Shown one piece after another: positions 13,550-18,005 of a DNA stretch of 64,000 nt; within the stretch, counting starts at the first letter, position 1; each line of letters starts with the position of its first letter. The position numbers and the translations under genes were made by a program. Where the stretch lies: contig NZ_JACHHK010000003.1 of NCBI RefSeq assembly GCF_014202755.1, forward strand, positions 124,001-188,000. Direction: 5' to 3'. The stretch comes from Catenisphaera adipataccumulans (GTDB taxonomy: Bacteria; Bacillota_I; Bacilli_A; Erysipelotrichales; Erysipelotrichaceae). The notes under the pieces are model-generated. The model was not told where the DNA came from, did not search any database, and was given only the letters and a program-made list of their open reading frames with translations.

Positions 13550-14491
13550 ATGCATATCCATACCTTTAAACGGATCATCGAACTGATCAACGAAGAAAGT
13601 CTGGAAGTTTTTCACAAAGAACCGCTGGTGCATACGATTTATTTGGAAACGGGCATTCAGCCGACGATCATCGAACATGCCATGAACAACCTGGAAAAAG
13701 TTGGTCTGCTGCGCTGGCCGCACCGGCAGCCCAATATCCTGCCGGCTATCCTGATCTATGCCAAATGCGGACACGGAAGCCGTCTGGAAGCCCTGGCACT
13801 GTATGAAAGCCTGCTGCTGCATTTTCAGAATTTTCTGCACCCGCATCATTTACAGATCGAACGGCTGCCGGTCTTCTGGCAGCGTCTTCTTAATAACACA
13901 GTGCTGACCGAGGATCCGGAACTGCAAAAATTAATGGAGCAGATCTACGAAGAATCGAAGCATGCGATCATCAGCGACACGCTTTGTGTGCTTTATACAA
14001 AACGGATCATGGATTTTTCGGATCAAATCGAATATAAAAACCAAAACCGCAAAATGATTTCCTTTGAACATGCAGATTTTATTCTTGAACAGCTGCCCCA
14101 GCACGGCATTCCGGAAAATCGCGATCTCAGTAAAAACCTGCAGGTCTTTTATAAAGATACGCAGATGCATGAGTTTGCGAAAACGTGCCCGATCTGCGGC
14201 ATCACGCTGCCGCGGATCCTGATTGCCAGTCATATCAAACCGTTCCGTGACTGCGCACATATTTATGAAGCCGCCACTCATGAAAATGGGCTGCTGCTCT
14301 GCCGCAATCATGACTATCTTTTTGATCAAGGTTATATCTCTTTTGAGGATGACGGCACATTAATGGTCAGTCCGCAATTACCGGACAGCCGCCGGGAAAG
14401 CTATTGTCTGCATTCAATTGATGCGCGCTATATGACGGCGCATCGCCGCCAGTTCATGGCTTATCATCGGCAGCATATTTATAAAAAATGA
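13550..14491 (+). CDS. HNH endonuclease-domain protein
   Basis: 313 residues. The C-terminal third is an HNH_2-type nuclease: CPICGITLPRILIASHIKPFRDC, then ENGLLLCRNHDYLFDQGYISFEDDG, with zinc-type CxxC and the catalytic His in SHIKP. The N-terminal 200 residues (opening MHIHTFKRIIELI) are helical and resemble no domain I know; a winged-helix start is possible. Such nucleases occur in restriction or defence genes, but this one stands alone between housekeeping genes, with no methylase beside it. No Shine-Dalgarno is present. Confidence 0.82.
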   Translation: MHIHTFKRIIELINEESLEVFHKEPLVHTIYLETGIQPTIIEHAMNNLEKVGLLRWPHRQPNILPAILIYAKCGHGSRLEALALYESLLLHFQNFLHPHHLQIERLPVFWQRLLNNTVLTEDPELQKLMEQIYEESKHAIISDTLCVLYTKRIMDFSDQIEYKNQNRKMISFEHADFILEQLPQHGIPENRDLSKNLQVFYKDTQMHEFAKTCPICGITLPRILIASHIKPFRDCAHIYEAATHENGLLLCRNHDYLFDQGYISFEDDGTLMVSPQLPDSRRESYCLHSIDARYMTAHRRQFMAYHRQHIYKK

Positions 14492-14973: not shown

Positions 14974-15075
14974 AAGCTACCTCCTGTGTCTCTTTTTATT
15001 CTATCATAAATCCTGCAGAACAAATCATGCGATGTGTCTATTTTGAAATGAATAAAAATATGATAATTATATATT

Positions 15076-16341
15076 ATGCCAAATTTAGAGAAAACAGTCA
15101 GCGACTATATGTACGACAAAACCTATAACGATCCCGATGTCGCCCGGAAACGCTTGCTTCAAGCCTATAAAGCGTATGCCTTCAAACTTCGATACTTTCC
15201 GGACAAGAACCTGCCAAAATCAAGACAGTATCTCGGCCGCATCAGCATGGATCATATCATCCGTGCGTACGATCACCCAGAGCAGTCTGCCCTGACCAGT
15301 TTGTTCATGCCGAATGAAATCAATAAAGCGTTCGGCCTGCACGATCTTTGTGCTGAGCAGTTTGCCGCTTATATCGGCGGAGCCTGGTCGACAAAAGCGT
15401 ATGTGGAAATTGCTGAACGGGCCGGCATTGCCGAAACGTTCTGCTCCTATCATAAGATCCTGATGGGAGCAGCCGTCCAGGGCATTCTGCCGAAACCGAA
15501 AGTCATCGTCAATACATCCTTGGCCTGCGATGCCAACAACCTGAGCTTCCGCGCTATTTCCAATTTATATGGCGTCCCGCAGTATTATGTAGATGTACCA
15601 TATACGCAAAGTCCGGCAGCGGTGGAATATGTTGCCGATCAGCTGCGTAAGCTCGTGCCGTGGCTGGAAGAACATACCGGCCGCAAATTTGATGAACAAG
15701 CATTCCATGAAGCTATTCTGAATTCTAAGCACACCATTGAAAATATGCAGGAAGTACTGCGGCTGAAAAAGGACCACTACCTGCCGACCACTTTGACATG
15801 TGAACTATACGAAACGTTGGCACTGCACGGCGGTCTGGGTTCCAAAGAATCCCTGCGGTATTCTGAAAAACTTCTGCATGATTATCGTCATGCGGAAGCA
15901 AGACCGGGCAAGCGTATATTATGGATGCATACGAATCCATTTGGTCAGAACTGTGTCAAAGAACTGTTCAATGAATCGGAAAAATACCAGTTGATCGCCG
16001 GCGATATTAACTTTGATTCACTGGTGGACATGGATCCGGATCATCCGTTTGAAAGCATGGCCCGCCGTCTGGTCTATGGCATCATCAACGGACCGGTCAC
16101 CAACCGCATCAACGGCGTCAGAAAAACGGCCGATGCGCTCGATATCGACGGCATCATTTGTTTCTGCCACTGGGGCTGCAAAGAAACCTGCGGCGCCAGC
16201 TCGCTGATCAAGGAACAGCTGGAACAAGCCGGTTATCCGACCTTGATCTTAAACGGTGACGGCGTTGATCCAAGCAACCGCAACGACGGTCAGACCCAGA
16301 CACGGGTCGAAGCATTCCTGGAAATGCTGGAAAGGGACTGA
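15076..16341 (+). CDS. 2-hydroxyacyl-CoA dehydratase-family subunit (HgdB/double-cubane reductase type)
   Basis: 421 residues. It shows the family pattern in order: NTSLACDANNLSFRAI, WMHTNPFGQNC, then DGIICFCHWGCKETCGAS and the C-terminal GDGVDPSNRNDGQTQTRVEAF. The cysteines are candidate iron-sulfur ligands. Members reduce or dehydrate acyl-CoA through ketyl radicals, or are double-cubane cluster reductases; the sequence alone does not decide which. The next gene, one base later, supplies a second subunit plus activator. No Shine-Dalgarno is visible before the ATG. Oxygen-sensitive anaerobic chemistry is expected. Confidence 0.85.
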   Translation: MPNLEKTVSDYMYDKTYNDPDVARKRLLQAYKAYAFKLRYFPDKNLPKSRQYLGRISMDHIIRAYDHPEQSALTSLFMPNEINKAFGLHDLCAEQFAAYIGGAWSTKAYVEIAERAGIAETFCSYHKILMGAAVQGILPKPKVIVNTSLACDANNLSFRAISNLYGVPQYYVDVPYTQSPAAVEYVADQLRKLVPWLEEHTGRKFDEQAFHEAILNSKHTIENMQEVLRLKKDHYLPTTLTCELYETLALHGGLGSKESLRYSEKLLHDYRHAEARPGKRILWMHTNPFGQNCVKELFNESEKYQLIAGDINFDSLVDMDPDHPFESMARRLVYGIINGPVTNRINGVRKTADALDIDGIICFCHWGCKETCGASSLIKEQLEQAGYPTLILNGDGVDPSNRNDGQTQTRVEAFLEMLERD

Positions 16342-16342
16342 C

Positions 16343-17971
16343 ATGATTTATTATACGTGTAAATATGCACCGGTCGAAATGATGGCTGGGTTCGGGCAGA
16401 CATGTGAACGGCTGGATCCCAATCCGGCGAATTTTGAATGCGCCGACAGCTGTGCGCACCAAAATTTATGCGGGTTTGCCAAAGCGGTCATCGAAGAGAT
16501 CCATCAAAAAAAGATCAAAGAACTGATCATCACAGATTGCTGCGATTCCATGCGCCGCATCAATGATGTGCTGAAAAACAGCGGCTGGCTGGATTTCCTT
16601 TATTTTCTGCCGTTGCCGCATACCGGCGGTGAAAAGTTCTTTGCCAAAGAACTGGAAAACCTCTGTGAAGCCTACAGCGAATACAGCGGCATCCCCTTTG
16701 ATCTTGACAAAGCGCTGGCAGCCTTTCAGCCGCCGCAGAAAGAACCGTCCGGTCCGTACATTCGGTTTACCGGCGCACACGGCGGCCACATGCTCAAGAA
16801 ACGGGTCGAGGCAACCTTCCCCGGCATCCCGATCGTCGATGATACCTGCACCGGCAACCGGGCCATGGAACGAGTCGCCGATGCCGATAATTTCTTTGAA
16901 GATTATGCAGAAATCCTGCTGCATCAGAAAGCATGCATGCGGATGTGGAATGTCCGCAATCGGACCATGCTCCATCCGCCGATCGGCACGATTTATCATA
17001 CGATTAAATTCTGTGATTATTACGGATTTGAATACATGAACATGAAAGAGGATACGAAAATGCCATTATTGAAGATCGAAACCGATACCACGCCGCAGAG
17101 CAGCGGCCAGATCAAGACCCGTTTGGATGCATTTGCGGAAACAGTTACAAACAATGTGGAAGATCTGCATGTCAATATCGACCGCGATCACTTCCTGGTC
17201 GCCGGCATTGACAGCGGTTCGACCAGTACAGATGTCATCATCATGAATGAAAAACAGGCCATTCTGGCCAGCACGATCGTTCCGACCGGCGCCGGCGCGA
17301 CCCGCACGGCCCGTCAGGCATTGGACCTGGCGCTGAATTCTGCACATAAGACGATCGATGATATCGATCTCGTGGTAACGACTGGATACGGCCGCGAAAA
17401 TATCGCCCCCAATACGATGTCGATCACCGAAATCACCTGCCATGCCAAAGGCGCACATTATTTGGATCCCAAAGCCAAGACCGTGATCGATATCGGCGGT
17501 CAGGATTCCAAGGTCATCCGCATCGATGAAGATGGCCGCGTTGAAAACTTTGTCATGAACGATAAATGTGCAGCGGGCACCGGCCGTTTCCTGGACATGC
17601 AGGCGCGGGCTTTGGAAATTTCCTTGAAAGAGATGAGCGCACTAGGACTCGAATGGAAAAAAGATGTTACCATTTCTAGTATGTGCACCGTCTTTGCGGA
17701 AAGCGAAGTCGTCTCTCTGGTTGCCGAGAACGTCGCAACACCGGATATCATCCATGGCCTGAATAAAGCCGTTGCCTCCAAGACTGCTACCTTAGTGACG
17801 CGGGTCAAAGGTGAACCGGAATACATCATGACCGGCGGCGTCGCCCAAAACAAAGGTGTGGTCACTTGTCTGGAGGAAAAATTGGGAGCCAAGATCTTTA
17901 TCTCCAGTCAGGCACAGTCGTGCGGTGCGATCGGCGCAGCCCTGCTGGGTATTGAAGCAATCCAACGATAA
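16343..17971 (+). CDS. Fusion of 2-hydroxyacyl-CoA dehydratase subunit with its ATP-dependent activator
   Basis: 542 residues in two parts. Residues 1 to about 275 form a dehydratase-like subunit that opens YYTCKYAPVEMMAGFG and is Cys-rich (6, 21, 33, 37, 43, 66, 67). Residues about 283-542 form a complete HgdC/BadF-type ASKHA activator with GIDSGSTSTD, Cys409 (NDKCAAGTGRF) and Cys448 (SSMCTVFAESEV). These two cysteines are 39 apart, the spacing of the cluster ligands in known activators, where an ATP-driven [4Fe-4S] dimer injects electrons. The start at 16343 lies one base after the preceding stop, with AAAGGG upstream; the frame from 16256 is rejected. Confidence 0.87.
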   Translation: MIYYTCKYAPVEMMAGFGQTCERLDPNPANFECADSCAHQNLCGFAKAVIEEIHQKKIKELIITDCCDSMRRINDVLKNSGWLDFLYFLPLPHTGGEKFFAKELENLCEAYSEYSGIPFDLDKALAAFQPPQKEPSGPYIRFTGAHGGHMLKKRVEATFPGIPIVDDTCTGNRAMERVADADNFFEDYAEILLHQKACMRMWNVRNRTMLHPPIGTIYHTIKFCDYYGFEYMNMKEDTKMPLLKIETDTTPQSSGQIKTRLDAFAETVTNNVEDLHVNIDRDHFLVAGIDSGSTSTDVIIMNEKQAILASTIVPTGAGATRTARQALDLALNSAHKTIDDIDLVVTTGYGRENIAPNTMSITEITCHAKGAHYLDPKAKTVIDIGGQDSKVIRIDEDGRVENFVMNDKCAAGTGRFLDMQARALEISLKEMSALGLEWKKDVTISSMCTVFAESEVVSLVAENVATPDIIHGLNKAVASKTATLVTRVKGEPEYIMTGGVAQNKGVVTCLEEKLGAKIFISSQAQSCGAIGAALLGIEAIQR

Positions 17972-17974
17972 AAA

Positions 17975-18005
17975 AATCAGCGAAAAATTTTCGCTGATTA
18001 TTTTT
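17975..18005. terminator. Bidirectional terminator
   Basis: A 12-bp palindrome AATCAGCGAAAA / TTTTCGCTGATT, with A-run before and T-run after, serves the dehydratase operon and the convergent epimerase gene. Confidence 0.9.

What the first reader, a model, noticed from the sequence alone, without database searches (positions are those of the whole stretch)
15076..17971. Dehydratase subunit fused to its own ATP-dependent activator
One chain joins a Cys-rich dehydratase-like subunit to a complete HgdC/BadF-type activator, with its two cluster cysteines 39 apart. In known systems these are separate proteins that meet transiently. Fusion would keep the electron donor at hand. There is no CoA transferase or ETF nearby, so the substrate may not be a CoA ester; a double-cubane reductase is an alternative.
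Basis: partly seen in the sequence, partly recalled or inferred. Interest (0 to 1): 0.52.

Follow-up and report, generated by a model that had tools for sequence, protein, structure and literature searches.

The report
Cluster-bearing reductase subunit fused to activator
A gut-type anaerobe carries a compact two-gene enzyme, related to those that break aromatic rings or remove water from amino-acid derivatives, in which the part predicted to hold an unusual double iron-sulfur cluster is permanently joined to the ATP-driven motor that charges it; the fusion is real and shared by many anaerobes, but what the enzyme reduces is unknown.

Summary
Confirmed. Window 16343-17971(+) encodes one 542-aa chain: a short HGD-D-type beta subunit (1-268) fused to a complete HgdC/BadF-type activase (286-541; C409/C448, 39 apart). 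The partner alpha subunit (421 aa, 15076-16341) lies one base upstream. It is neither an artefact nor unique: a public-genome scan with the beta domain alone found 38 loci; all 38 have alpha directly upstream, 36 have the activase in the same frame, and two are cut by contig ends. Six invariant beta cysteines align one-to-one with the six published [8Fe-9S] double-cubane ligands of BzdN; HadC of a true dehydratase lacks two. Alpha keeps the three [4Fe-4S] ligands and catalytic Glu of BzdO, but has Asn for His131 and a CHWGCK motif. Best reading: a self-contained two-polypeptide relative of ATP-dependent benzoyl-CoA reductase, with electron gun and double-cubane capacitor on one chain. The same genes occur unfused in a sister family. 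No conserved neighbours reveal the substrate. It passes no NCBIfam equivalog cut-off for known dehydratases, reductases or DCCP. My literature searches found no description. New variant of a known kind; substrate and cofactors untested.

The parts
15076..16341 (+). alpha subunit gene, 421 aa, HGD-D family, predicted catalytic [4Fe-4S] subunit
   Evidence: Pfam HGD-D 221 bits; AF2 model pLDDT 90, nearest solved folds HadB Z 38.1 and BzdO Z 36.6
15355..15357 (+). alpha Glu94, equivalent of BzdO Glu65 (catalytic acid/base)
   Evidence: HMMER alignment to BzdO, invariant 22 of 22; role from PMC11971306 section 8
15442..15444 (+). alpha Cys123, equivalent of BzdO Cys95, predicted [4Fe-4S] ligand
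   Evidence: 22 of 22
15526..15528 (+). alpha Cys151, equivalent of BzdO Cys128, predicted [4Fe-4S] ligand
   Evidence: HadB alignment direct; BzdO alignment after moving a one-residue gap; 22 of 22
15535..15537 (+). alpha Asn154, at the place of BzdO His131; family-specific
   Evidence: N in 22 of 22 fused-family alphas, A in 10 of 10 unfused sisters
16165..16182 (+). alpha C364-H-W-G-C368-K motif; Cys368 = BzdO Cys380, predicted [4Fe-4S] ligand
16343..17971 (+). fused beta-activase gene, 542 aa
16343..17146 (+). beta domain (residues 1-268), predicted double-cubane [8Fe-9S] electron-storage domain, lacking most of the helical middle domain of BzdN
   Evidence: VIA-align Z 22.3 to BzdN, 22.0 DCCP, 21.6 HadC (tied); profile hits to DCCP, HadC, BzdN
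16358..16360 (+). beta Cys6 = BzdN Cys36 (ligand; Pro in HadC)
16469..16471 (+). beta Cys43 = BzdN Cys73 (ligand)
16538..16543 (+). beta Cys66-Cys67; Cys67 = BzdN Cys100 (ligand); Cys66 is a seventh, fused-family-specific cysteine
16847..16849 (+). beta Cys169 = BzdN Cys263 (ligand; Ala in HadC)
16934..16936 (+). beta Cys198 = BzdN Cys293 (ligand)
17012..17014 (+). beta Cys224 = BzdN Cys327 (ligand)
17147..17197 (+). linker, residues 269-285
   Evidence: gap between domain matches
17198..17965 (+). activase (ASKHA ATPase / archerase) domain, residues 286-541
   Evidence: TIGR00241; 1hux Z 36.5, rmsd 1.5 over 258, 44% identity
17567..17569 (+). activase Cys409, predicted bridging [4Fe-4S] ligand
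   Evidence: aligned to Cys in 1hux and 4eht; invariant 28 of 28
17684..17686 (+). activase Cys448, predicted bridging [4Fe-4S] ligand
   Evidence: aligned to Cys in 1hux and 4eht; invariant 28 of 28
17975..17999 (.). terminator-like hairpin, 11 pairs with T runs on both sides, ending the two-gene unit

Best explanation
The two genes encode a self-contained, two-polypeptide, ATP-driven low-potential reductase of the benzoyl-CoA reductase / 2-hydroxyacyl-CoA dehydratase superfamily. Shown here: the fusion, the operon, the fold assignments, and conservation of ligand positions. Inferred: two fused chains pair through their activase domains, which share one [4Fe-4S] cluster held by C409 and C448 of each chain; this cluster takes an electron from ferredoxin or flavodoxin; ATP hydrolysis fires it into a double-cubane [8Fe-9S] cluster in the beta domain; the double cubane stores two or more electrons; they pass to a water-ligated [4Fe-4S] cluster in alpha (C123, C151, C368, with Glu94 as acid/base), where the substrate is reduced. 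The fusion fixes motor and capacitor in 1:1 ratio. The substrate is unknown; Asn154 and the CHWGCK motif suggest that it differs from benzoyl-CoA and from 2-hydroxyacyl-CoA.
For: Six invariant beta Cys (C6, C43, C67, C169, C198, C224; 38 of 38 fused betas) align with BzdN Cys36/73/100/263/293/327, named as the [8Fe-9S] ligands; all six are Cys in DCCP, only four in HadC. Alpha C123/C151/C368 match BzdO Cys95/128/380 and Glu94 matches Glu65. Alpha has Ser or Asn, not Cys, at the place of beta C6, so it is a single-cubane subunit like BzdO. The activase is complete and closest to HgdC, MbdQ and HadI. Alpha adjoins beta in 38 of 38 loci and the activase is in frame in 36 of 36 assessable. The sister family has the same three parts unfused, and one member of the fused clade has them as three ORFs. 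The window's genome and four of seven other carriers checked have no HGD-D protein besides this pair, so the pair can work without another one.
Against: No cofactor, activity or complex was measured. Beta sits equally close by fold to BzdN, DCCP and HadC (Z 22.3, 22.0, 21.6: tied), so only the ligand pattern separates them. The alpha fold scores slightly nearer HadB than BzdO (38.1 against 36.6), and His131 of BzdO is not conserved. A functional activase dimer would tie two alpha-beta pairs together, and whether both can be served is not modelled. The C151/Cys128 equivalence to BzdO needs a one-residue gap shift.
Confidence: 0.62

Rival explanations
1. It is a 2-hydroxyacyl-CoA dehydratase: the activase injects one electron that is recycled, and alpha removes water from an amino-acid-derived CoA ester.
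For: Alpha fold is nearest HadB (Z 38.1) and HadB is the best PDB profile match of alpha (94.6 bits); Glu94 and the three alpha ligands are shared with a HadB-like protein (L012).
Against: Beta has the two extra cysteines that HadC lacks. HadB and HadC equivalog cut-offs are not reached (64.8 of 750; 23.8 of 700). No PF01144 CoA transferase in the genome; the family III one and the ETF lie on other contigs, the ETF in a stretch whose gene order looks like a butyrate cluster. No conserved neighbours in relatives.
Confidence: 0.2
2. It is a DCCP-like small-molecule reductase, acting on acetylene-, azide- or hydrazine-like substrates at a double cubane.
For: Beta retains all six double-cubane ligands and DCCP is its best PDB profile hit (96.6 bits); like DCCP/DCCP-R it stands alone without a pathway around it.
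Against: Alpha lacks three of the six ligands, so a pair of double cubanes as in the DCCP homodimer is not expected; NF040772 cut-off 350 not reached (65.3 and 49.7); alpha keeps the BzdO/HadB-type active-site Glu.
Confidence: 0.13
3. The fused chain is an activation module for another protein, not an enzyme with alpha.
For: Related ATPases are thought to serve other and unknown targets (recalled, no call).
Against: Alpha is directly upstream in 38 of 38 loci, and no other HGD-D gene exists in the window genome.
Confidence: 0.05

Closest known systems
Class I benzoyl-CoA reductase BzdNOPQ (PDB 8s02; PMC11971306)
   Same: One subunit with six double-cubane ligands, one with three [4Fe-4S] ligands plus catalytic Glu, ATP-dependent activase
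   Different: Four polypeptides with two different ATPase subunits; His131 in BzdO; beta here is about 100 residues shorter and fused to a single activase; no benzoate pathway nearby
2-hydroxyisocaproyl-CoA dehydratase HadBC with HadI (3o3m, 4eht)
   Same: HGD-D heterodimer plus homodimer-type activase; alpha fold and ligands
   Different: HadC lacks two of the six cysteines; HadI is a separate protein; equivalog cut-offs not reached
DCCP with DCCP-R (6eno, 7yyl); YjiM-YjiL of enterobacteria
   Same: Six double-cubane ligands in beta; stand-alone gene pair; activase encoded next to the HGD-D gene
   Different: DCCP is described as a homodimer with a double cubane in each monomer (PMC11971306); here alpha has a single-cubane pattern and the activase is fused
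Activase-DUF2229 proteins of about 990-1440 aa
   Same: Activase covalently joined to another domain of the wider system
   Different: Activase domains come first, DUF2229 after; no HGD-D match
Unfused sister family found here (beta-alpha-activase, e.g. L117, L125, L133)
   Same: Six beta cysteines, alpha Glu94 and HxGC(K/R) motif, adjacent activase
   Different: Three separate genes in another order; Ser at beta 66; Ala at alpha 154

Membership tests
Acyl-CoA dehydratase activase (TIGR00241 / PF01869) | Profile match over the curated cut-off with two cluster cysteines | tested here: met
   255.7 bits against 125.4; C409 and C448 invariant 28 of 28
HGD-D superfamily (PF06050) | Profile match over the curated cut-off | tested here: met
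   alpha 221.4, fused chain 98 against 28.4
Class I benzoyl-CoA reductase, Bzd type | Six [8Fe-9S] ligand cysteines in one subunit | tested here: met
   All six columns Cys in 38 of 38; the cluster itself was not observed
Class I benzoyl-CoA reductase, Bzd type | Three [4Fe-4S] ligands and Glu65 in the catalytic subunit | tested here: met
   C123, C151, C368, Glu94
Class I benzoyl-CoA reductase, Bzd type | His131 next to the water ligand | tested here: not met
   Asn154 in 22 of 22
Class I benzoyl-CoA reductase, Bzd type | NCBIfam equivalog bzdO cut-off | tested here: not met
   57.9 against 448.6
Class I benzoyl-CoA reductase, Bzd type | Reduces benzoyl-CoA | not testable with these tools
   needs assay
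2-hydroxyacyl-CoA dehydratase (HadBC) | HadB and HadC equivalog cut-offs | tested here: not met
   64.8 of 750; 23.8 of 700
2-hydroxyacyl-CoA dehydratase (HadBC) | Beta subunit with the reduced (single-cubane) ligand set | tested here: not met
   beta has Cys at the two positions where HadC has Pro and Ala
2-hydroxyacyl-CoA dehydratase (HadBC) | Dehydrates a 2-hydroxyacyl-CoA | not testable with these tools
   needs assay
DCCP (NF040772) | Equivalog cut-off 350 bits | tested here: not met
   65.3 alpha, 49.7 fused chain
DCCP (NF040772) | Double cubane in both subunits of the dimer | tested here: not met
   alpha has 3 of 6 ligand columns
Activase-DUF2229 fusion | DUF2229 domain in the chain | tested here: not met
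   no PF09989 hit in the fused chain; present in L145-L147 proteins

The most novel reading that the evidence does not exclude
A widespread but undescribed class of minimal super-reductase in gut and sediment anaerobes: double-cubane capacitor and ATP motor on one chain, with a catalytic subunit whose Asn154/CHWGCK cluster site reduces a substrate that is not a known CoA ester. The unfused sister family shows how such a machine may have been assembled from separate genes.
Probability: 0.3. Interest if true: 0.78.

Novelty: new variant of a known kind. Interest (0 to 1): 0.56.

Why it matters
Double-cubane [8Fe-9S] enzymes reach very low potentials; PMC11971306 (2025) calls BzdNO the first with a defined catabolic function and leaves the role of DCCP open. 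A natural fusion of double-cubane domain and motor would give a stoichiometric, two-gene system for studying ATP-gated electron transfer, which normally depends on transient docking, and points to an unassigned low-potential reduction in anaerobes that include the gut bacterium Flavonifractor plautii.

Tried and rejected
Substrate from gene context: clustering of neighbours around the loci gave no family in more than 3 loci apart from the two genes, and the 10 representative neighbours scanned were unrelated (DNA ligase, nuclease, regulator, ROK kinase, phosphorylase, aconitase, Tex and others). The unfused sisters lie near transporter genes in 3 of 7 neighbourhoods (L137, L139, L142, by sequence clusters; of these, three L142 genes were profile-scanned: LivF-type ATPase, binding protein, CBS-ACT protein) and near a radical SAM gene in 2 of 7 (L136, L138, same cluster, L138 scanned); too varied to name a substrate.

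A three-way fusion in L050 (923-aa frame) was rejected: its first part is an out-of-frame reading of the alpha gene.

Rfam search of the window: no match. A promoter-like site at 15043-15070 is no better than chance (6 found, 4.8 expected). Only an alpha tree was built; beta and activase trees were not. In it the outgroups sit on very long branches, so the root of the fused clade is uncertain. Whether the split in G997 is real, or a base error in its short A run at the junction, is undecided. The complex was not modelled; interdomain geometry of the fused model was not judged.

Papers: PMC11971306 outline with abstract, sections 7, 8, 12 and one passage of section 10; PMC11574389, PMC5322559 and PMC10418091 passages only. 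The DCCP paper of 2018 (PMC5866592) is not held; what I say of DCCP comes from PMC11971306, from PDB titles, or from recall. 'Not described in print' rests on the search listings, in open-access papers only.

Full report
What is there. Two genes run in the same direction. The first (15076-16341) encodes a 421-aa HGD-D protein, alpha. One base after its stop, ATG 16343 opens a 542-aa chain ending at 17971. HGD-D (98 bits) and BcrAD_BadFG (209.7 bits) both match that chain over their cut-offs, and TIGR00241 matches at 255.7 against 125.4. A terminator-like hairpin with 11 pairs follows at 17975-17999. No Rfam family matches anywhere in the window.

Fold. AlphaFold2 with an alignment of 28 rows gave the fused chain at mean pLDDT 87.2 and pTM 0.78; alpha with 22 rows gave pLDDT 90.2 and pTM 0.90. 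By VIA-align the activase half matches 1hux (Z 36.5, rmsd 1.5 over 258 residues). The first half matches BzdN (Z 22.3, rmsd 2.5, 268 aligned), DCCP (22.0) and HadC (21.6), which are tied. Alpha matches HadB (38.1, rmsd 2.6, 372 aligned) and BzdO (36.6).

Chance, artefact, or family? A scan of one genome for each of 84,980 species, with peptide patterns from the beta domain only (the activase was not part of the query), returned 38 loci. In all 38 an alpha gene lies directly upstream, mostly with a 4-base overlap. In 36 the activase is in the same open frame as beta; in the other two, L066 and L068, the frame runs off the contig. Record titles name Flavonifractor plautii, Aminicella, Eubacterium oxidoreducens, Clostridium, Spirochaetaceae, Coriobacteriaceae and Erysipelotrichaceae, among others. 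In the phylum of F. plautii 24 of 398 sampled genomes have a match over the whole fused length (counted by me from the rows). In the window's order 8 of 315 genomes have strong beta matches (E below 1e-80), one of them ending at position 219 of 279 and one with an in-frame stop. In the window's phylum sample three of 392 (own, G061, G066) have full-length beta matches, and two more are weak.

Which cluster? PMC11971306 names Cys36/73/100/263/293/327 of BzdN as the ligands of the [8Fe-9S] cluster, and Cys95/128/380 of BzdO as those of the [4Fe-4S]-OH2 cluster (passage read). In the profile alignments (residue numbers counted by me from the printed alignment, and in agreement with the Arg53, Ser239, Arg267, Arg290, Gln324 and His330 that the paper names) beta C6, C43, C67, C169, C198 and C224 fall on exactly those six. 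All six are Cys in DCCP; HadC has Pro and Ala in place of the first and fourth. All six, plus C66, are Cys in 38 of 38 fused betas (28 of A4 and 10 more). In alpha, C123, C151 and C368 fall on the three BzdO ligands and Glu94 on the catalytic Glu65. HMMER's own BzdO alignment puts C151 one residue off Cys128; the HadB alignment and a one-residue gap shift support the match. Asn154 takes the place of His131 in 22 of 22, and C364-H-W-G-C-K surrounds the last ligand, with a few exceptions at C364, H365, W366 and K369. So beta has the double-cubane pattern and alpha the single-cubane catalytic pattern, as in the Bzd-type benzoyl-CoA reductase and unlike both HadBC and DCCP.

Where it came from. 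The activase part also picks up systems in which the same three parts are separate genes, beta-alpha-activase (ten of the 20 loci fetched: L117-L119, L121, L123, L125-L127, L133, L134). Their betas have the six cysteines (8 of 10 complete at every position; the other two lack one or more N-terminal positions in the alignment) with Ser at 66; their alphas have Ala at 154. An alpha tree puts the 30 fused-family rows in one clade (99/99), on a long branch. G997 (L110), inside that clade, has alpha, beta and activase as three ORFs, with a 10-base overlap of the last two; this is either a secondary split or a base error in a short A run. In plasmid-collection records the fused chain aligns from residue 128 or so to 525 as one stretch over enterobacterial yjiL and its double-cubane neighbour gene, so beta and activase genes already stand next to each other there. 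In the tree the window alpha groups with one of its own family (L115) inside an Oscillospiraceae-rich clade (100/99), while other members of its order (L010, L011) group elsewhere, which suggests transfer between lineages.

Function. No neighbour is conserved across the loci, so the substrate cannot be read from context. In the window's genome the pair is the only HGD-D system. The ETF genes lie on contig C4 in a run of genes whose order looks like a butyrate cluster (from gene order and opening residues, not scanned), and the one family III CoA transferase is on C1. Of seven named carriers checked, four (G650, G651, G655, G656) have HGD-D hits only in this pair and three have more.

Mechanism proposed. 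Shown: fusion, operon, folds, ligand positions. Inferred from the known families: two fused chains share one [4Fe-4S] cluster between their activase domains; ATP hydrolysis drives electrons into the double cubane of the beta domain; they collect there and pass to the alpha cluster, which reduces the substrate. That double cubanes store two or more electrons, and that activase clusters bridge a homodimer, comes from PMC11971306 and PMC11574389, not from tests here.

Comparison and verdict. The activase is a member of its family. The pair fails the NCBIfam equivalog cut-offs for HadB, HadC, BzdO and DCCP, so it is filed as none of these; it most likely works like a Bzd-type reductase with motor and capacitor fused. 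Covalent activase fusions as such are not new: activase-DUF2229 chains of 988-1442 aa are in this genome and its relatives. The combination of double-cubane beta domain, C-terminal activase and separate alpha was not found described in nine searches of open papers.

Noticed in passing
L110:2822-4446 (G997): The fused chain is split into beta (279 aa) and activase (264 aa, GTG start) overlapping by 10 bases, inside the otherwise fused clade.
   Followed up: partly
L115:835-2640 (G515): The nearest relative of the window system by alpha has an in-frame TAG within the beta domain, so it looks broken or mis-sequenced.
   Followed up: no
L078 (G623): Only fragments of beta (131-aa frame) and activase (280-aa frame) were seen: apparently a decaying copy.
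   Followed up: no
L137, L139, L142: Unfused sister systems lie beside a branched-chain-type ABC transporter and, in L142, a CBS-ACT protein; a possible hint to an amino-acid-like substrate.
   Followed up: partly
L136, L138: Unfused sister systems follow a gene with an iron-dependent-repressor-type N-terminus and a radical SAM/SPASM gene (profiles run on L138).
   Followed up: partly
L146:938-3904: The window's genome also encodes a 988-aa activase-DUF2229 protein next to a frame with a weak DUF2229 match.
   Followed up: partly
window 13550-14491: HNH endonuclease-type gene with a weak match to a phosphorothioate-DNA-binding restriction endonuclease model (29.2 bits, cut-off 180).
   Followed up: no
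PDB 9g87_B (MbdN): MbdN of 3-methylbenzoyl-CoA reductase has Gln at the first double-cubane ligand position, so not all class I reductases may carry that cluster.
   Followed up: no
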